The notes below the pieces were generated by a model. That model worked only from the letters and a program-made list of their open reading frames with translations. It ran no database searches and was not told the DNA's origin. A DNA stretch of 64,000 nt from Bacillus multifaciens (GTDB lineage Bacteria; Bacillota; Bacilli; Bacillales; Bacillaceae_G): the NCBI RefSeq assembly GCF_030756675.1, contig NZ_JAVBXD010000010.1, forward strand, positions 58,575-122,574, written 5' to 3'. A program made the position numbers and the translations under genes. Numbering within the stretch: position 1 is the stretch's first letter; each line of letters begins with the position of its first letter. This document shows positions 3,159-55,127 of this stretch, piece after piece.

Positions 3159-3926
3159 CTATGCATTATAACGATTTTTTCTTCGTTCCATTCTCGTTTG
3201 TCCTTGTGCTGTTCCAATATCATTATGTTGCTCTGTTGGCGTTGTATGATAAGTTGGTGCTGCTTCTTGATGATTTCGTTCATACGTGCGAGTGTCTCTC
3301 TGTTTAGAAGATTTTTTACCGAACTTTAGCATTTTAAATTTTAATCTCGGTAAACTCGGAATGCGAATTTTAAATGTAGGTCTCATTCGCTTCTTTTTTT
3401 GTTGAAATGCGCTTGTTTTTTCTTGCTTTCCGTTATCACGGTGCAGCGCGTTTGCAAGCAAACCGCCGAGTAAGAAGCCTGCCACTAAAATGACTAAATA
3501 CAACCGTTCTGTTGTAAGTAGGTTCATCATGCGCTGAAGAACTGCTAGTGATTGAATTTGCTTTGCATCCCAAAGCATTACGCCCCATAATGCAAGAAGT
3601 CCTAGTGTAATCGCATATGTACGGAATCGGAATAAAAACGGGATGACAGCAATACATGCAGCGATTTTTGCGTTCGCAATTAAAGAATCAACTGTTATGT
3701 ATTGATTCCAAATTGACATCAAGAGTGTAATAAATGCTGCGTATGCTACCCAACTAAATATTCGTGAATGCATTCGTTTGGCATGATAGCTCCCAAAACT
3801 AGTTAAAAATAATAAACCACCTATATATAATGATAATTGTAGGGGCATTTGTTTCATTAAACCTGTAACTGGGAATAGGGCGCTGAGCACCATTAACAGT
3901 ACATCAAGTTTTCTCACAATTCTCAA
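3159..3926 (-). CDS. Integral membrane protein with basic cytoplasmic tail, unknown function
   Basis: 255 residues. Six hydrophobic segments fill residues about 8-165 (for example LLMVLSALFPVTGLM, LYLVILVAGFLLGGLLANAL). From about 170 the protein becomes a strongly basic soluble tail (QQKKKRMRPTFKIRIPSLPR, KMLKFGKKSSKQ) ending MERRKNRYNA. I do not recognise a family with certainty. The tail would lie in the cytoplasm under the positive-inside rule and could bind nucleic acid or acidic lipid, but this is a guess. It stands alone, ended by the hairpin at 3083-3147. Confidence 0.75.
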   Translation of the reverse strand: MRIVRKLDVLLMVLSALFPVTGLMKQMPLQLSLYIGGLLFLTSFGSYHAKRMHSRIFSWVAYAAFITLLMSIWNQYITVDSLIANAKIAACIAVIPFLFRFRTYAITLGLLALWGVMLWDAKQIQSLAVLQRMMNLLTTERLYLVILVAGFLLGGLLANALHRDNGKQEKTSAFQQKKKRMRPTFKIRIPSLPRLKFKMLKFGKKSSKQRDTRTYERNHQEAAPTYHTTPTEQHNDIGTAQGQTRMERRKNRYNA

Positions 3927-4346
3927 TCCCTTTCAGCTTTCTAACTTCTATAGCATAATGGTATTTTTCTGTTTTGTATATATGCATTCAGCTATACAAT
4001 AACATGCTTATAAAACATCTTAATCCTATTCATGCTAAGAAGTAAACAAAAAAAGTGGAGTGATAATTGACAAGAAATGATTATTTTAAAATTAGAAAAT
4101 ATCTGAGTGATAAACAAGATGTTTAATGAAGGGTTTAAAAATGGTTGTTAAATTATATCTTTTAGTGCGATTGTGAAAAAACTAAGTATTATGGTGTGCC
4201 TCAAATTACTGCGTCTATATGAATTTTTAACGTGAGTAAGTATCTTATCTTTATCCAAGTAGATAAGTGCAAGTAAGCATTTTTTCATCTATACATTCAT
4301 GATGAATACAAAAAGCCTTATTGTAATACAATTTAAATTTTGTAGA
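3927..4346. other. Intergenic stretch at the trailer end of the CRISPR array
   Basis: About 420 bp of AT-rich sequence. A short TTG-initiated frame near 4067 (19 codons) stops early and has no supporting homology that I recognise. I see no cas gene, RNA gene or clear hairpin here. Confidence 0.6.
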
Positions 4347-4513
4347 ATTTCAATCCATGCACCCTATGAAGGATGCGACTTTTTAAGTATGTTAGTTATT
4401 CATATACAAAACAATTTCAATCCACGCACCCTATGAAGGATGCAACTTGGCGTTTCGGGTTCCGGGAAAAGTGTAGCAATATTTCAATCCACGCATCCTA
4501 TGAGGGATGCGAC
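4347..4513 (-). CRISPR. Orphan CRISPR array, three 33-nt repeats, subtype I-C type
   Basis: Repeats lie at 4347-4379, 4414-4446 and 4481-4513, separated by two spacers of exactly 34 nt (4380-4413 and 4447-4480). On the plus strand each repeat starts ATTTCAATCCA and ends GATGCGAC or GATGCAAC; the reverse complement GTCGCATCC...GGATTGAAAT is the well-known subtype I-C repeat form. Repeat 1 has CCATGC for CCACGC, repeat 2 has GCAAC for GCGAC, repeat 3 has GCATCC...GGGATGC. Transcription should run on the minus strand from the leader at higher coordinates. No cas gene is present within the window, so the array is either a relic or depends on a Cas set elsewhere. Confidence 0.9.
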
Positions 4514-4690
4514 AGCGATTTTTGTTCAAAATAACACGCAAATACGTAAATTCTGTATAAAAACCAGTTATTTTCTTTAATAAAATTAAAAACCTTTACA
4601 GAAAATCATAAAATTCAATCGTAAATCGTGAAAATTCAGGTGCGAATCCCCTTGGAATTTTATGTGCGCTTTACATTCGCACATAAAAAT
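4514..4690 (-). promoter_or_regulatory. CRISPR leader of subtype I-C appearance
   Basis: An AT-rich stretch adjoins repeat 3. Further out come GGTGCGAATCCCC (4639-4651) and an 11-bp inverted repeat TTTTATGTGCG/CGCACATAAAA (4658-4668, 4678-4688). From memory, I-C leaders carry similar GTGCGAAT and GCGCACAT-type boxes between cas2 and the array, so this supports both the subtype and the minus-strand direction. Confidence 0.6.
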
Positions 4691-4944
4691 TAAAGGACTT
4701 TACAAAATTAGTTGTTTCTTTTCCACCAATAAGTTCTACCTAGTACTTGTCTCGAATGAAGCTACCACTTCACTATTTTAGCATTCAATGAGTATTAAGT
4801 AGAAATTAATTTATATCTAAATTTCCAATAACATCAAACTCTCATATAACAAAACTCTAATTTCAATCATAACAATTAGAATCCATACAAAAAGCTTGTG
4901 GTTGACTATTCCTTCTCGCTCAAAACTTTTACAGATTTACTATT
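4691..4944. other. Non-coding stretch where cas2 would be expected
   Basis: About 250 bp. In a complete I-C locus cas2 would end here. Reading the minus strand I find only short frames broken by stops and no recognisable Cas2 or Cas1 residue pattern. Confidence 0.55.
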
Positions 4945-5460
4945 TTAAAACACATAGCGTTTAACTGATGCTTTGTTGACAGGTAAATATAAAACGAGCT
5001 GAGGCCCAATCGGCCCCATTCGACGCTGTCCTCTATCTTCAAAACCAACTGTTATGTATAATTTTTGCGCAGGAATATTTTTTTCATTGACTGCCAATAC
5101 GATTTCTTCTATGTTTGGAAAGTATAAACCTACATAATTTGGTAGCAGTTGCAGTGCGCGTTTTGCATACCCGTTTCCTTGTTCAGTGTAATTAATCGAA
5201 AATGAAGTGAGTAACAAAGACTTTTCTTTCGTTGTATATTCTTGCACACGACTTCCTGATTGTAAGGAAAAAATACCTACTGGCTTGTCATCAGCTAAAA
5301 TAACAATAGGATTTCGAGTTGGATCCTGCTTCGCATGATTTAATAGTTCCATTGGATGAGCAGTAAATTGTACTTGTTCTTCGGGTAAAGTATAGGTTTG
5401 AAAAGTTTCTTTATATTCCTCTGTATATGGAACGAGTTGAATAGATTGATTCATTTGCAT
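4945..5460 (-). CDS. GNAT family N-acetyltransferase
   Basis: The start chosen is the ATG at 5460 (MQMNQSIQLV), 9 nt after GGGGGA; an upstream in-frame ATG would add 20 residues without a ribosome site. The 171-residue product has the GNAT layout: early strands, ADDKPVGIFSLQSG, the acetyl-CoA loop region NYTEQGNGYAKRALQLLPNY (Q/R-x-x-G-x-G/A variant) and the NEKNIPAQKLYITVGFEDRG segment typical of motif B. Substrate is unknown. It ends the block next to the CRISPR leader and is transcribed alone. Confidence 0.85.
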   Translation of the reverse strand: MQMNQSIQLVPYTEEYKETFQTYTLPEEQVQFTAHPMELLNHAKQDPTRNPIVILADDKPVGIFSLQSGSRVQEYTTKEKSLLLTSFSINYTEQGNGYAKRALQLLPNYVGLYFPNIEEIVLAVNEKNIPAQKLYITVGFEDRGQRRMGPIGPQLVLYLPVNKASVKRYVF

Positions 5461-5550
5461 AACATAAATTCCCCCAGTTATAAAAACATATGTTTCCTTC
5501 CATGTAAAATCATATAACATTTTTAGTAATAAAGGAAATTTTCAGTTTTC

Positions 5551-10110: not shown

Positions 10111-10662
10111 TTATGCAGCTTTCTTTTGTTTTCCAAACCCACTATACTCATAGACAACACCCATAATATCAAAGACTGTTTTCTTCTCATATCGATGAGA
10201 TTTTCGCCCATTTTTCTGTAATAGGTGGTGTAGGCGGATTAGAATCTTTGTTATTTCTTGGGTGTCTTTCTGTATAGCTTGATACAAAAGATATAAATAA
10301 TCTTGAATCATCCCTATCGCTTTATATTCGCTTAATTCTCTTTTCTTCTTTTGCAAAAGAAGTTGGCGCATTTTAAACATAATAGAGGTACACAGGAAAA
10401 TAGCGATTAGCTTTCCATATAATTGGCACTCTAATCGTTCCTGTTTTACATGACGATAATGGTGTATTTTGAAGAGTGATTTCCACGTTTTAAAGACAAT
10501 CTCTATTTGCCAACGCAAAGTATATAACTCATGTACTTGTTCCATCGGACCCATTCCCAAGGTGTATTCGTCACGTACACGTTTAACCCCGCTATATGTA
10601 TGTAATCCGGAAGATGCAGTCTTAGTAAAAAGGACAAGAGGTGTTCTCATGTACGAAAACAC
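10111..10662 (-). pseudogene. IS231-type (IS4 family) transposase, C-terminal fragment
   Basis: The frame holds about 145 residues of the transposase C-terminus from [20 protein letters not shown] to the end GFGKQKKAA, including the IS4 signature Y-(2)-R-(3)-E-(6)-K in [16 protein letters not shown] full IS231 transposase is about 475 residues, so two thirds including the first two catalytic aspartates are missing. The first 38 residues ([20 protein letters not shown] and on) do not look like IS231 and probably come from fused foreign DNA. It cannot be an active transposase. Confidence 0.85.
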
Positions 10663-10835: not shown

Positions 10836-11786
10836 TTACAATCTCTTCTGTAAGAACGTTTCTATAATATCCTTCTTGAATCTTTCATAATCCAACTGAA
10901 AAGCTACATTATGCGTTTTATATCCTGGATTAGTCACAAAACGAAAGTCTGCAATGCTTTGACCAAATCCTTCTCCTTGATCAGGAATTACTTTAATGGG
11001 TACTCTTGAAAGGCTAACAGCCTCTTGATTCAGCAAATACCACACTGTTACAAAATCATGCATAGGACTTCCGCTTATACCGGGATTAGACTTGGAGTAG
11101 AAACTATAATAATAGTCTAACATAGGTTTGATGATGAGTCCTGCAAGATCCTGTGTATTCTGATGAAATGCATCGATTTGTTGGACCATTTCGGGTGTAA
11201 CAATCGCATGTTGAGTTACATTTAACGGAATAATTGTCAAGTTCTTCGCATGCTGCAAAATTAAGTTTGCTGCATAAGGATCGGCATAAAAGTTAGCTTC
11301 AGCTACAGCAGTCACATTACCTGGATAAAAAAAAGCTCCGCCCATGCAAATACATTCCCTTACGTTCCGCATTGTTTCTAAATTTAATACAAAAGTTGTA
11401 GCTAACGAAGAAAGTCTTCCTAAATTGATAATTGTAAGATCTTCTAAATTTGAATGTATAACTTGGTAAATATCATTTAAGGGATAAACTGGATAAGAAA
11501 TTTCAGGGGGAATGATAGGTCCTAATCCGACTTTTCCATGTACCTCGGGGAAATACTGAACCAATATACCTGTCAACGGTACAGAAGCACCAAGGAATAC
11601 AGGTATCTCTTCTCTTCCTGCAATGTACTTCAAATAGTTAATATTTCTGATAACATTCTCTCTTGATACATTTCCATAATCGGCGACAATCCCTACAAGT
11701 TGAATATCTTTACGAAAAAAGGTATACAAAATAGCAAACGCATCATCAATTCCCAAATCCGTAAATAGGAGAACTTTTTTTTGCAT
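10836..11786 (-). CDS. Nucleoside hydrolase (inosine-uridine preferring family)
   Basis: The start is the ATG at 11786 (MQKKVLLFTDLGIDDAFAIL), 7 nt after GGAGGA; the 36-codon upstream extension has no ribosome site. 316 residues. The N-terminal calcium-binding Asp cluster is TDLGIDDAFA (family consensus DTDPGxDDAxA, here with Leu for Pro). PGNVTAVAEANFYADPYAAN and the later HDFVTVWYLLN supply the other conserved residues. These enzymes split N-ribosides to base and ribose in purine/pyrimidine salvage. The substrate cannot be decided. It is a single gene. Confidence 0.88.
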   Translation of the reverse strand: MQKKVLLFTDLGIDDAFAILYTFFRKDIQLVGIVADYGNVSRENVIRNINYLKYIAGREEIPVFLGASVPLTGILVQYFPEVHGKVGLGPIIPPEISYPVYPLNDIYQVIHSNLEDLTIINLGRLSSLATTFVLNLETMRNVRECICMGGAFFYPGNVTAVAEANFYADPYAANLILQHAKNLTIIPLNVTQHAIVTPEMVQQIDAFHQNTQDLAGLIIKPMLDYYYSFYSKSNPGISGSPMHDFVTVWYLLNQEAVSLSRVPIKVIPDQGEGFGQSIADFRFVTNPGYKTHNVAFQLDYERFKKDIIETFLQKRL

Positions 11787-11969
11787 ATATCTTCCTCCAA
11801 ATTTATAGAATCCTATTTTCACTAAGGATGTAGTGAGTAGGATAGGCTTGTACGTATATATTTTATGTATTCCTAAAAAGTGAATTCTATTCATATGTAG
11901 TTATCATAAAAACAATTATTGGTATAAAAATGTGCCTTACATAACCAATCATTATCGTAGCAGACAAAA

Positions 11970-12134: not shown

Positions 12135-12974
12135 TTATAGTTTTGTCCGAATAGCCCAAAGCTCTGGGAAAAATGATTGATCAAGCACACGTTTTAAATA
12201 CGAAACGCCTGAAGAACCGCCAGTGCCCATCTTATGACCAATAATACGTTCTACTGTTTTCATATGACGGAAGCGCCACTGCTGCAGCCAATCTTCAATA
12301 TCGATTAGCTTCTCAGCTAATTGATATAAATCCCAGTATTTCTTCACATCTGAGTACACTTCTAACCACGCTGCTTCTACTGTTGCATCTGGTTCATATG
12401 GTTGTGTAATATCACGTTGAAGCACAATCGGATTGATTGGAAAACCTTCTTTAGCAAGCGTTTGAATCGCAACGTCATATAAACTCGGTGTGTGAAACGC
12501 CTTATGTAGACGAGTATATAACTCTTCATCTTTTTCATAGATTTTAAGAATATGTGGTGTTTTATAACCAAGTGCAAATTCAATCATCCGATATTGGTAA
12601 GATTGAAATCCAGATGATTGACCGAGTGCATCGCGGAATTCAATATATTCTGCCGGTGTAAGCGTCGCAAGAATATCCCACGACTGAATAATTTGCGATT
12701 GAATTTTTGAAACGCGTGCAAGCATCTTAAAAGCAGGCGCAAGATTTCCATTTTGAATGGACTCAATAGCTGCTTCTAACTCATGCAAAATTAATTTCAT
12801 CCAAAGTTCACTTGCTTGATGAATCACGATGAACAACATTTCGTCGTGATGATTGGACAGTCGCTTTTGACTTGAAAGCAAACTGTCTAGTTGTAAGTAC
12901 TCTCCGTATGTCATGTTGTTACGAAAATCTGTATGAATTCCTTTTTCCATAATCACTTTTTCATTTTCTGTCAT
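12135..12974 (-). CDS. kynA: Tryptophan 2,3-dioxygenase
   Basis: 279 residues, the typical length. It oxidises L-tryptophan to N-formylkynurenine with haem and O2. Seen: N-terminal [20 protein letters not shown], the substrate-facing [20 protein letters not shown], and the C-terminal [20 protein letters not shown] with the haem-ligand histidine region and the GTGGSSG loop. The ATG follows AGAGGATG. It is the last gene of kynU-kynB-kynA (transcribed in that order on the minus strand), 36 bp after kynB. Confidence 0.96.
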
Positions 12975-13010
12975 ATGTGTACATCCTCTCTATGCAGTAT
13001 ATATTTATTT

Positions 13011-13640
13011 TTATAATGGTTTTAATACGGCACGCACTGGACTACCGTCTGCATCTGTTAGTGAAAGTGGCAGGGCAATCAGTTCATAGTCTCCGTCTTG
13101 TACATTTTCCAAAACAACATTTTCTAAAATATGAATACCGTGTTTAAATAATTCATGGTGTGCTGCTAGCTCTTTATCATTAAGTGGGTCCACAGACGGA
13201 ACATCAACACCAATTAAACGAACTCCTTTTTCATGAAGGTATGGTGCAAGATCTGCACGTAAATACGGAATCGTTTCAGGAAATACATGTGGATTTGTTT
13301 TTGATAAGGTTCGCAATAATAATCTACTTACCCCTTCTAAATCATAATTTTCAAGTTCTTTTGCTCCGATGCTTTCGAGACCTGTTACATCTATAATTCG
13401 AGCAGGACCGATGTAGATGTTAATATCAAGATCACTTACTTTTTTACCATCATTATCGAAGTGAAACGGAGCATCAATATGTGTGCCGGTGTGAATACTC
13501 ATCGAAATTTTACCAACATTAACCGAGCCGCTTTGCTCTTTTGTCCATGAAACTTCATAGGAAAAAGGTGTATCGCCAGGCCAAGTGGCAATTTTATTAT
13601 TTAGAGGTTGAGAAATATCAATCCATTTGTGTTCTTTCAT
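13011..13640 (-). CDS. kynB: Kynurenine formamidase (arylformamidase)
   Basis: 209 residues of the cyclase family. It hydrolyses N-formylkynurenine to kynurenine and formate. The metal-binding motif SIHTGTHIDAPFHF (H-x-G-T-H-x-D-x-P-x-H-F) is intact, as are DISQPLNNKIATWPGD near the N-terminus and LIGVDVPSVDPLN. Its ATG lies 2 bp after the kynU stop, with GAGAGG inside the kynU end acting as ribosome site, so translation of the two is probably coupled. Confidence 0.95.
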   Translation of the reverse strand: MKEHKWIDISQPLNNKIATWPGDTPFSYEVSWTKEQSGSVNVGKISMSIHTGTHIDAPFHFDNDGKKVSDLDINIYIGPARIIDVTGLESIGAKELENYDLEGVSRLLLRTLSKTNPHVFPETIPYLRADLAPYLHEKGVRLIGVDVPSVDPLNDKELAAHHELFKHGIHILENVVLENVQDGDYELIALPLSLTDADGSPVRAVLKPL

Positions 13641-13642
13641 CT

Positions 13643-14929
13643 TTATGCCACAACCTCTCGTTTATTTTCAAATTGTTTATACTCCTCATCTACCATAATC
13701 TTTTTCAAAATTTGGACAGCGTTCCATACTTCTTCATACGTATTGTATAACGCGACAGGAGCTAAACGAATGCCATTTGGAGCGCGAAAATCAGGAACAA
13801 TTCCATTTGCCTTTAATGCTTTACAAATCCGCGCCGCTTCTTTATGTTCTAAATAAATATGTCCGCCTCGTATTTCATCCTCTAACGGATTACCAAGTGT
13901 AAAGTCCATATCTGCTAATTCATGTTGAATAAGGTTTATCATATAACGTGTAATATGAAGGGATTTTTTCCGTAAGCGCTCTATACCTGCTTCTTTAAAA
14001 ATTTCTAAAGAACCAATAAGCGGTGCAACACTTAATACGTGCGGTGTTCCAATTTGATAGGCACCGGCATGCTCAGCTGGTGTAAGTTCGTGCTCCATAT
14101 CAAACTGCTTATCTTTTCGAGAGCCAAACCAACCCGCTAATCCTGGTAGACGATTAAAATGTTTTTTATTTACGTACAAGCCTCCAACACCGCCTGGTCC
14201 GGCATTTAAATATTTATAATTACACCAAACTGCAAAATCAACGTCCCATTCTTGAAAATGATGCGGAATAGAACCGATAGAATGGCAAAGATCAAAGCCG
14301 ATATGAATCCCTCGTTTATGTGCTTCTTCTGTAAGAAATTTCATATTTAAAATTTGACCACTTCGATATAACACAGCTGGAAGGACAATAAGTGCAATAT
14401 CTTCTGTCATTGCAGCAATAATATCTTCTTCATTTAACGTTCTTCCATCCCTGCTTTTCACTTGAACAAGATGCTCAGCAGGGTCCAATCCTTTTAAACG
14501 AATTTGGCTTTGCAAAGCATAAATATCAGATGGAAATGTTAACTCATCGGCAAGGATTTTTGTTTTTCCTTCTTTCGGTTCGAAAAACGTAGCAACCACT
14601 TGATGTAAATTTGTCGTCGTGGAACCGGTTACAATTACTTCTTCTGGCGTGGCACCAATAAGAGGCGCAGTTAATTCTCCTAATTGCTCAGATAAGAAAT
14701 ACCAAGGATGCGGTCCTTCTGTCCAGCCGTCAATGCCAAATTGTTTCCATGAATCTAGTAATGTTAATAAAGACTGCTCAGCTCGTTTAGATAGAAGCCC
14801 AAGTGAATTTCCATCCAAATAAATGGTTCCTTCTTTTTTATAAAATTCATGTTGAAACGATGCGAGCTCATCATTACGATCACATTGACGGGCGTACTCA
14901 TAAGATGGCTCAAATGGTTTTGTGTACAT
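13643..14929 (-). CDS. kynU: Kynureninase
   Basis: 428 residues, a PLP-dependent fold type I enzyme that cleaves kynurenine to anthranilate and alanine. The Schiff-base lysine is in [20 protein letters not shown]; other conserved parts are [22 protein letters not shown] and [30 protein letters not shown] site precedes the ATG. It is the first gene of the operon, so the order of translation is kynU, kynB, kynA. The promoter region carries the TGACA/TGTCA palindromes at 14991-15024. Confidence 0.95.
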
Positions 14930-49872: not shown

Positions 49873-49918
49873 AAACCGCATATAACCGAAAACAAATGTT
49901 ATCGGTTATATGCGGTTT
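49873..49918. terminator. Bidirectional terminator
   Basis: AAACCGCATATAACCGA (49873-49889) pairs perfectly with 49902-49918; it lies between convergent DUF1836 and MFS genes. Confidence 0.9.
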
Positions 49919-50450
49919 TGTTCTTTATTCGGCAAAGTACGATCCCACTTATCATATATAGAATAGAAGCGACGTAAAAAATCGTTCCAATCGTTAAAAA
50001 ATCCACCAAATACCCTGTTAAAATAATGGCTATCGCTGCTCCTAAAGATGTCCAAATATGATATTTTCCAATTTCATAGCCAGCTTCTTTACGTTCTATT
50101 TTTCGTACAAGCGATGTTTTTTCTGCATTTTTCTGCATAGCCCCTAACAATCCCATCATAATTTGCAAAATATATACATGCCAAACTTCTGTCGCGATTG
50201 GAAAACATAACATTAACACAGCCATTGACCAGGAATATACAATCAATAGTTTTTTATCACCAAACCGATCAGAAACCTTACCGATTAAAGGATAGGCAAG
50301 CGCTGATGTTAATGCAAATAAACCATATGCCCATCCAAATTGTGAAAAGCTATTTCCTACGTTTCTTAGCAATAATACATAAAAAGGAAATACCATACTT
50401 CCAGCCATCATAATGAGACTTTGTGAAACTACAAATCTTGTATATGTCAT
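49899..50450 (-). CDS. Half-size MFS transporter-like protein
   Basis: 183 residues with six membrane segments and the MFS loop motif LIGKVSDRFGDKKLL (G-x-x-x-D-R-x-G-x-x) between the second and third. A usual MFS protein has 12 segments and about 400 residues, so this is one half: the motif after helix 2 identifies a bundle of six. It may work as a dimer or be a remnant. The end RIKNKTAYNR falls inside the terminator arm. Its ATG overlaps the stop of the FAD oxidase gene (ATGA), with AAGGAG upstream. Confidence 0.8.
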   Translation of the reverse strand: MTYTRFVVSQSLIMMAGSMVFPFYVLLLRNVGNSFSQFGWAYGLFALTSALAYPLIGKVSDRFGDKKLLIVYSWSMAVLMLCFPIATEVWHVYILQIMMGLLGAMQKNAEKTSLVRKIERKEAGYEIGKYHIWTSLGAAIAIILTGYLVDFLTIGTIFYVASILYMISGIVLCRIKNKTAYNR

Positions 50451-53966: not shown

Positions 53967-55127
53967 GTGAAATTTAATTTATTACCAATTCAAAATCAAC
54001 AGTCGTTATTACACAATAAAAATAACAAAGAAAGATTCGCAAATACAATTGCGATATGGAACGAAGATTTTTTAAAGCAAGCTGAAGATCGAAAAGAACA
54101 AAATGAACGTCAACATACATACTCATATGAAGGTTTTTCTGACGAAGAAATTTTGTACTATTACTTAAATCGCCAAACGCATTTTGATAAAGAGAAACGA
54201 GTGAAAGATACATCTCGTCTTCTCTATTCTAGAGATTTATCACAATTTTATTTTTTTATTAAAGAGCATATGGAATTTTTACAAATGGATGTGGAACATT
54301 TCATAGAAGGTAAAGTTTGGATGAATTTACGAAAACGACATATTCGTAATTATCAAAAGTGGCTTGCTGAAGAAGCTATATCCTATCAATCTAACGAAAA
54401 ATATAAGCCAGCAACAGTAAGTAGAAAGATACGCATTACACGTTCTTTTTTAAAATGGTTATATGAAATTGAATATATTAAAGAGCCTTTGTACATTGAT
54501 ATACTAAGTACAACGATAACACAAAAACATAAACCAAAAAGAGAGTTATCTTATGAAGAAGTAAAACAATTGCTTTCCTATTATAAAGATAATCCTATCA
54601 ATTATGCCTTGCTTTCAATATTGGCAACAACCGGATTACGTGTTGCTGAAATTGCGCATGCAAGGTGGGAAGATTTAGAATATGATGCATTACGCGATCG
54701 CTATTTTCTTTATGTGAATACAAAAGGAGATTCTGAACGAATTGTACCCATTAATAAGGCAGTGTTTGAGAGAATCATTGCTTTTCGAAGACGACGACGC
54801 CTGCCAATTGAATTAGGAATTAATCATGGCGGTACAATTTTTCAAACAAAAAATCATACAGCGTATAAAGAAAATTACCTATCTCAATATATTACGAAGA
54901 TTATAAAAGAAACTGATCTATCTTTTACAAAGAATGAAAAAATAACCCCCCATTTCTTTAGGCATTTTTATGTTCAATATTTATATGACTATAAACAATT
55001 ACCACCGCATATTATCGCCGCAGCTGTTGGGCATAAAGATGATAGAACAACGAAAGAAAATTATTTGAAGCAGCGATTGATGAAAGATCATGACGCGGGG
55101 AATTTAATTAGTGATGATGAATTTTAA
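53967..55127 (+). CDS. Tyrosine-type site-specific recombinase
   Basis: A GTG at 53967 after AAGGA is the start. 386 residues. The N-terminal 70 residues are polar and unlike XerC/D; the core-binding SAM-like domain spans about 75-185. Catalytic residues: Arg in LATTGLRVAEIAHARWEDL, Lys in VNTKGDSERIVPI, HxxR in TPHFFRHFYVQYLY, His in IIAAAVGHKDDRTTKENYLK, and the Tyr just after in KENY. It is complete and should be active. A winged-helix gene lies downstream, a DNA-binding protein is divergent. Confidence 0.9.
   Translation: MKFNLLPIQNQQSLLHNKNNKERFANTIAIWNEDFLKQAEDRKEQNERQHTYSYEGFSDEEILYYYLNRQTHFDKEKRVKDTSRLLYSRDLSQFYFFIKEHMEFLQMDVEHFIEGKVWMNLRKRHIRNYQKWLAEEAISYQSNEKYKPATVSRKIRITRSFLKWLYEIEYIKEPLYIDILSTTITQKHKPKRELSYEEVKQLLSYYKDNPINYALLSILATTGLRVAEIAHARWEDLEYDALRDRYFLYVNTKGDSERIVPINKAVFERIIAFRRRRRLPIELGINHGGTIFQTKNHTAYKENYLSQYITKIIKETDLSFTKNEKITPHFFRHFYVQYLYDYKQLPPHIIAAAVGHKDDRTTKENYLKQRLMKDHDAGNLISDDEF

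What the first reader, a model, noticed from the sequence alone, without database searches (positions are those of the whole stretch)
4347..4690. Leader-bearing CRISPR array of subtype I-C type without cas genes
Three 33-nt repeats, two spacers of exactly 34 nt, and an I-C-like leader with GTGCGAATCC and TTTTATGTGCG/CGCACATAAAA boxes are present, but no cas gene lies within 64 kb. Equal spacers and an intact leader argue that the array was once, or still is, active with Cas proteins in trans. B. cereus group genomes rarely have CRISPR arrays.
Basis: partly seen in the sequence, partly recalled or inferred. Interest (0 to 1): 0.75.

Follow-up and report, generated by a model that had tools for sequence, protein, structure and literature searches.

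The report
Orphan type I-C CRISPR mini-array
A tiny, real bacterial immune-memory array (three repeats, two spacers, with its leader) sits here with no Cas genes beside it, and its drifted repeats suggest that it stopped recording new invaders long ago; such stranded arrays are common.

Summary
On the minus strand lie three 33-nt repeats (4481-4513, 4414-4446, 4347-4379), two 34-nt spacers and a leader (about 4514-4690); 100 shuffles gave no match to the repeat. The leader is a subtype I-C leader: a 41-nt box 126 nt before the first repeat keeps all 17 columns near-invariant in 12 boxes near I-C cas genes, and the junction TCGCT|GTCGC is that of a Bacillus halodurans I-C substrate. No cas gene was recognised in the window. 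The genome is not held, so Cas proteins in trans stay untested. New here: the first two repeats differ at 3 of 33 positions, against none in 13 of 13 cas-adjacent I-C arrays, so spacer uptake probably stopped long ago. No protospacer was found; one spacer reads as a Walker A motif. Such arrays are ordinary: 8 of 40 Bacilli genomes matching an I-C array pattern showed no cas7c, and published surveys report many orphan arrays. Verdict: new member of a known kind, probably dormant; interest low.

The parts
4481..4513 (-). repeat R1 (leader-proximal), 33 nt, perfect 7-bp stem
4447..4480 (-). spacer 1, 34 nt; on the + strand it reads GVSGSGKSVA (Walker A) in one frame
   Evidence: no protospacer
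4414..4446 (-). repeat R2, 33 nt, 3 differences from R1
4380..4413 (-). spacer 2, 34 nt, AT-rich, no protospacer found
4347..4379 (-). repeat R3 (distal), 33 nt, 3 differences from R1, 2 from R2
4514..4690 (-). subtype I-C leader, ending in AAAAATCGCT at the first repeat
4640..4682 (-). leader box with inverted arms GTGCGAAT (4675-4682, minus strand) and ATTCGCAC (4640-4647, minus strand), 126 nt before R1
4945..5520 (-). GNAT acetyltransferase gene upstream of the leader (flank, not part of the system)
3159..3926 (-). DUF3959 protein gene downstream of the array (flank, not part of the system)

Best explanation
It is an orphan subtype I-C CRISPR array: leader, three repeats and two spacers left near core sporulation genes of a Bacillus that looks like a divergent B. 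cereus-group species, away from any cas operon. It would be read on the minus strand from the leader, and I-C Cas proteins would be needed to use it (Cas5c cutting the repeat hairpins, then the Cas5-Cas8c-Cas7 complex and Cas3; pathway recalled). Shown: anatomy, subtype of repeat and leader, no recognised cas gene in the window, drift of the repeats. Inferred: that spacer uptake stopped long ago because the Cas1-Cas2-Cas4 module was lost or never came with it, and that the array is now mostly a dormant record.
For: Repeat and spacing. I-C leader box: 17 of 17 near-invariant columns kept; its distance to the first repeat is 126 nt, against 124-128 nt in 19 of 27 rows (range 118-161). In 12 genome loci such a box lies 1.96-2.10 kb downstream of cas7c on the same strand, room for cas4-cas1-cas2 (positions compared by hand), and in L007 it lies beside cas1 and a Cas2-like ORF (named from memory). 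The last five leader bases and first five repeat bases equal those of a B. halodurans Cas1-Cas2 substrate (PMC6519985). No cas gene recognised in the window. R1-R2 differ at 3 of 33 positions against 0 in 13 of 13 cas-adjacent arrays. All differences between repeats are transitions.
Against: The genome is not held, so I-C cas genes elsewhere in it cannot be excluded; 32 of 40 Bacilli genomes with the array pattern do carry cas7c over its cut-off. Leader box and repeat hairpins are intact. Of 12 remote, other-contig or cas-less arrays with at least two repeats, 9 have identical R1 and R2, so standing apart does not by itself mean dormant. PMC12814883 (passages) states that arrays with identical repeats are updated about equally whatever their distance from cas.
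Confidence: 0.72

Rival explanations
1. A remote array still used in trans: I-C Cas proteins encoded elsewhere in the genome or on a plasmid process its transcript, so its two spacers still give immunity even though uptake is slow or stopped.
For: Remote leader-bearing I-C arrays coexist with I-C cas genes in one replicon or genome: Paenibacillus amylolyticus plasmid (arrays roughly 24-29 kb before the start of the I-C operon), G377 (516 kb). Repeat hairpins all fold. PMC7242445 (section 18) reports 88% of classified B. cereus-group loci as plasmid-borne, so cas genes on a plasmid are plausible.
Against: Repeats have drifted at the leader end; no cas recognised in 64 kb; no protospacer found.
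Confidence: 0.22
2. A mini-array with a task other than phage immunity, such as excluding incoming I-C systems or regulating a gene with a partly matching spacer.
For: Orphan arrays with anti-cas spacers are known (Almendros 2016, seen here only as a reference in PMC12814883, PMC8954581 and PMC9071438).
Against: Neither spacer matches elsewhere in the window within 3 mismatches; no target found; spacer 1 reads as a Walker A motif.
Confidence: 0.04
3. Not CRISPR: an unrelated dispersed repeat.
For: None found; only three copies in 64 kb.
Against: I-C leader homology and junction; equal, unrelated spacers.
Confidence: 0.01

Closest known systems
Subtype I-C CRISPR array of Bacillus halodurans (substrates in Table 1 of PMC6519985, passages seen)
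   Same: Repeat GTCGCACTCTTCATGGGTGCGTGGATTGAAAT is closely alike; leader end TCGCT is the same
   Different: Here the repeat is 33 nt instead of 32, there are only three repeats, all different, and no cas genes beside them
Cas-adjacent I-C arrays of Bacilli genomes G035, G037, G084 (L086, L090, L089)
   Same: Leader box, spacing, AAAGAAAATA stretch and junction
   Different: They lie about 2 kb after cas7c and hold 17 to 23 repeats in the stretch fetched, the first two identical
Remote I-C arrays of Paenibacillus sp. 598K (L003)
   Same: One leader box shares an exact 19-mer with the window; R1-R2 differ by 1 and 2 bases
   Different: That genome has one cas1 match, on another contig beside another I-C array
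Orphan I-C arrays of Weizmannia coagulans (PMC8954581, passages and Table 4 seen)
   Same: Orphan I-C arrays, three of them with only 3-5 repeats
   Different: Other repeat sequences; cas operons elsewhere in those strains

Membership tests
Subtype I-C CRISPR array | Repeat of about 32-33 nt with inner stem and 3' end TGGATTGAAAT | tested here: met
Subtype I-C CRISPR array | Unrelated spacers of equal length | tested here: met
   34 and 34 nt
Subtype I-C CRISPR array | I-C leader box at the usual distance and leader-repeat junction | tested here: met
Subtype I-C CRISPR array | Spacers match mobile elements next to a PAM | tested here: inconclusive
   no convincing protospacer in phages, plasmids or viral contigs
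Subtype I-C CRISPR array | Transcribed and cut into crRNAs | not testable with these tools
   no RNA data; promoter-like matches in 4200-4950 at chance level, 4 found against 3.9 expected
Complete I-C CRISPR-Cas locus | cas3-cas5c-cas8c-cas7c-cas4-cas1-cas2 beside the array | tested here: not met
   none recognised in the window
Complete I-C CRISPR-Cas system in the genome | I-C cas genes anywhere in the genome | not testable with these tools
   own genome not held
Acquisition-active I-C array | Leader-proximal repeats identical | tested here: not met
   3 differences of 33; 0 in 13 of 13 cas-adjacent arrays

The most novel reading that the evidence does not exclude
A two-spacer I-C mini-array is kept for a standing task (crRNAs for Cas proteins supplied by visiting plasmids, or control of such elements), with leader and hairpins under selection although uptake has ceased.
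Probability: 0.07. Interest if true: 0.5.

Novelty: new member of a known kind. Interest (0 to 1): 0.2.

Why it matters
It adds one clean case to the known picture of stranded CRISPR arrays and of CRISPR loss in the B. cereus group. A simple measure, identity of the first two repeats, set this array apart from 13 of 13 cas-adjacent arrays; 3 of 12 remote or cas-less arrays also showed differences and 9 did not, so it may help to sort dormant from live orphan arrays. The conserved inverted repeat of the I-C leader is a testable protein-binding site.

Tried and rejected
Whole-genome search for cas genes: not possible, genome not held. Reaching close relatives through drawn genomes: the longest DNA matches to the flank were 68-72% identical (up to 77% over about 0.34 kb), so no near relative was reached and no orthologous or empty site could be compared. 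Of 8 relatives' loci examined (L060, L119-L125), 5 hold YhcN beside YpeB and SleB, and none gave a GNAT or DUF3959 match at 1e-3 in the stretch fetched. Rfam on 3800-5300 gave one weak match (18 bits, gathering 38) outside the array at 3913-3937, taken as chance. Array plus leader in plasmids: no match at 1e-5; at E up to 10, 34 records, of which Paenibacillus (two) and one Monoglobus record hold I-C arrays with the leader box; a 35-nt Priestia match was not borne out as an array (L009 shows no I-C repeat); the others are taken as chance. In phages, 51 records at E up to 10, none with 80% of the query. Protospacers: nothing convincing; partial matches of spacer 1 to traC and an ABC transporter gene fit a shared Walker A motif and are not targets. 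Repeat and leader-box patterns in viral contigs: 0 matches each. The leader 19-mer in genome-contig hit 6 loci; only L003 is a CRISPR leader.

Biases and limits. Most compared leaders were fetched with a pattern that asks for CGCAC at a set distance before an I-C repeat, so the share with the box (27 of 31 usable first repeats; 10 more too near an edge and left out) is not a frequency; that pattern also matches repeat to repeat inside arrays. The 12 loci near cas7c were picked because a box lay close to cas7c; L097 and L098 carry the same box, and L036 and L086 are one locus. The 8 of 40 genomes without cas7c rest on one model (TIGR02589) and on assemblies of unknown completeness; for 5 of the 8 the array DNA was read and shows the leader box (L101, L106, L108, L110, L111), for G110, G226 and G297 it was not read. 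The Walker A motif was noticed first and tested afterwards. Paper searches for the I-C leader (listings seen) showed no title on this box; that is no proof that it is unpublished: a passage of PMC12814883 cites Alkhnbashi 2016 and Buyukyoruk 2025 for type-specific leader motifs, neither of which I read, and Shmakov 2020 is not held.

Full report
What is there. On the minus strand of 4347-4690 lie a leader, three 33-nt repeats and two 34-nt spacers. Start-to-start spacing is 67 and 67. The repeat pattern occurs nowhere else in the window and never in 100 shuffles. Each repeat folds into a hairpin (-10.6 to -11.0 kcal/mol).

Why subtype I-C. The repeats resemble the B. halodurans I-C repeat printed in Table 1 of PMC6519985 (passages seen), and the leader ends in TCGCT directly before the repeat, as in that paper's substrate. 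Further up, 126 nt before the first repeat, is a 41-nt box. Such a box stands before I-C arrays of other Firmicutes, 118-161 nt from the repeat (27 rows; 27 distinct boxes, the window's included). In 12 genome loci it lies 1.96-2.10 kb downstream of cas7c on the same strand (positions compared by hand), and in L007 it lies beside cas1 and a Cas2-like ORF (named from memory). All 17 columns that are near-invariant in 12 such boxes are kept in the window. The box has inverted arms, GTGCGAAT/ATTCGCAC; 7 to 9 of 9 arm positions pair in the 27 boxes, and in L036 both arms carry the matching change GCGGAT/ATCCGC. A dimeric protein could bind it (inference).

No cas genes in the window. Pfam scans of 50 proteins and 29 small ORFs found no Cas protein; a PADLOC scan of 81 ORFs showed 25 of 99 matching families, none a Cas protein apart from a 'possible alternative Cas3' model matched by the RecQ helicase. 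The recognised genes are mostly metabolism, regulation, transport and sporulation, such as a spore cortex-lytic enzyme (SleB). SleB is roughly 85-90% identical, by eye, to PDB 4fet; that 4fet comes from the B. cereus group is recalled. The species is not determined; a divergent B. cereus-group species would fit.

Dormant rather than active. Integration happens at the first repeat and leaves it on both sides of the new spacer (PMC6519985 passage), so in active arrays the first two repeats should be the same. They were in 13 of 13 cas-adjacent arrays. Of 12 remote, other-contig or cas-less arrays with at least two repeats, 9 also showed no difference and 3 (L003 twice, L057) showed 1 to 4. L101 has a single repeat and was left out, and L036 duplicates L086. 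The window has 3. The last uptake was therefore probably long ago. The intact leader box does not speak against this: at about 4% change per lineage, 17 sites would stay unchanged about half the time (my estimate).

How common. Of 398 Bacilli genomes drawn, 40 matched the I-C array pattern and 53 had cas7c above its cut-off. Of the 40, 32 had cas7c over the cut-off and 8 had no match even at E 0.001; the array DNA of 5 of these 8 was read. Published surveys agree that orphan arrays are frequent: 207 orphan arrays in a non-redundant set of 17,828 plasmids (PMC9071438, passages), 13 of 30 arrays in W. coagulans (PMC8954581, passages and Table 4); for most types, I-C included, more distant arrays are shorter (PMC12814883, passages). 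In the B. cereus group 164 of 260 systems were judged defective through loss of cas genes (PMC7242445, sections 18-19).

Spacers. Neither spacer has a convincing match in phages, plasmids or viral contigs. Spacer 1 reads GVSGSGKSVA, a Walker A motif, which arises in any frame of 142 of 200,000 shuffles of the same letters and in 4 of 3763 stretches of the window. The motif was noticed first and tested afterwards. Its lost target was perhaps a P-loop ATPase gene (inference).

Verdict. A genuine I-C mini-array without cas genes in the window, probably orphan and dormant; ordinary in kind.

Noticed in passing
L008 and L118 (NZ_CP145893.1): Paenibacillus amylolyticus plasmid with an annotated complete I-C operon, III-B cmr genes just upstream, an I-C leader box after cas2, and further leader-bearing I-C arrays roughly 24-29 kb before the operon with no annotated cas gene near them.
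   Followed up: partly
L003: Paenibacillus sp. 598K contig with two leader-bearing I-C arrays of different repeats; the genome's only cas1 match is on another contig beside a third repeat type.
   Followed up: partly
L057: Monoglobus plasmid array whose successive repeats alternate between two versions (0, 4, 0, 4 differences from the first).
   Followed up: no
10111-10662: Transposase stretch matching only the end of the DDE domain profile, apparently a remnant; similar DNA is annotated as IS4 family on a Bacillus arachidis plasmid.
   Followed up: no
10836-11894: Nucleoside hydrolase gene 85% identical to one on a small plasmid recorded as Pseudomonas fluorescens (NZ_CP100661.1), an odd host for it.
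   Followed up: no
12135-14929: Tryptophan 2,3-dioxygenase, putative cyclase and kynureninase genes in a row, which looks like a kynurenine pathway cluster.
   Followed up: no
53967-55127: Phage-type integrase with no recognised phage structural gene beside it.
   Followed up: no
49899-50450: MFS transporter ORF of 183 aa that covers only the first half of the family profile.
   Followed up: no
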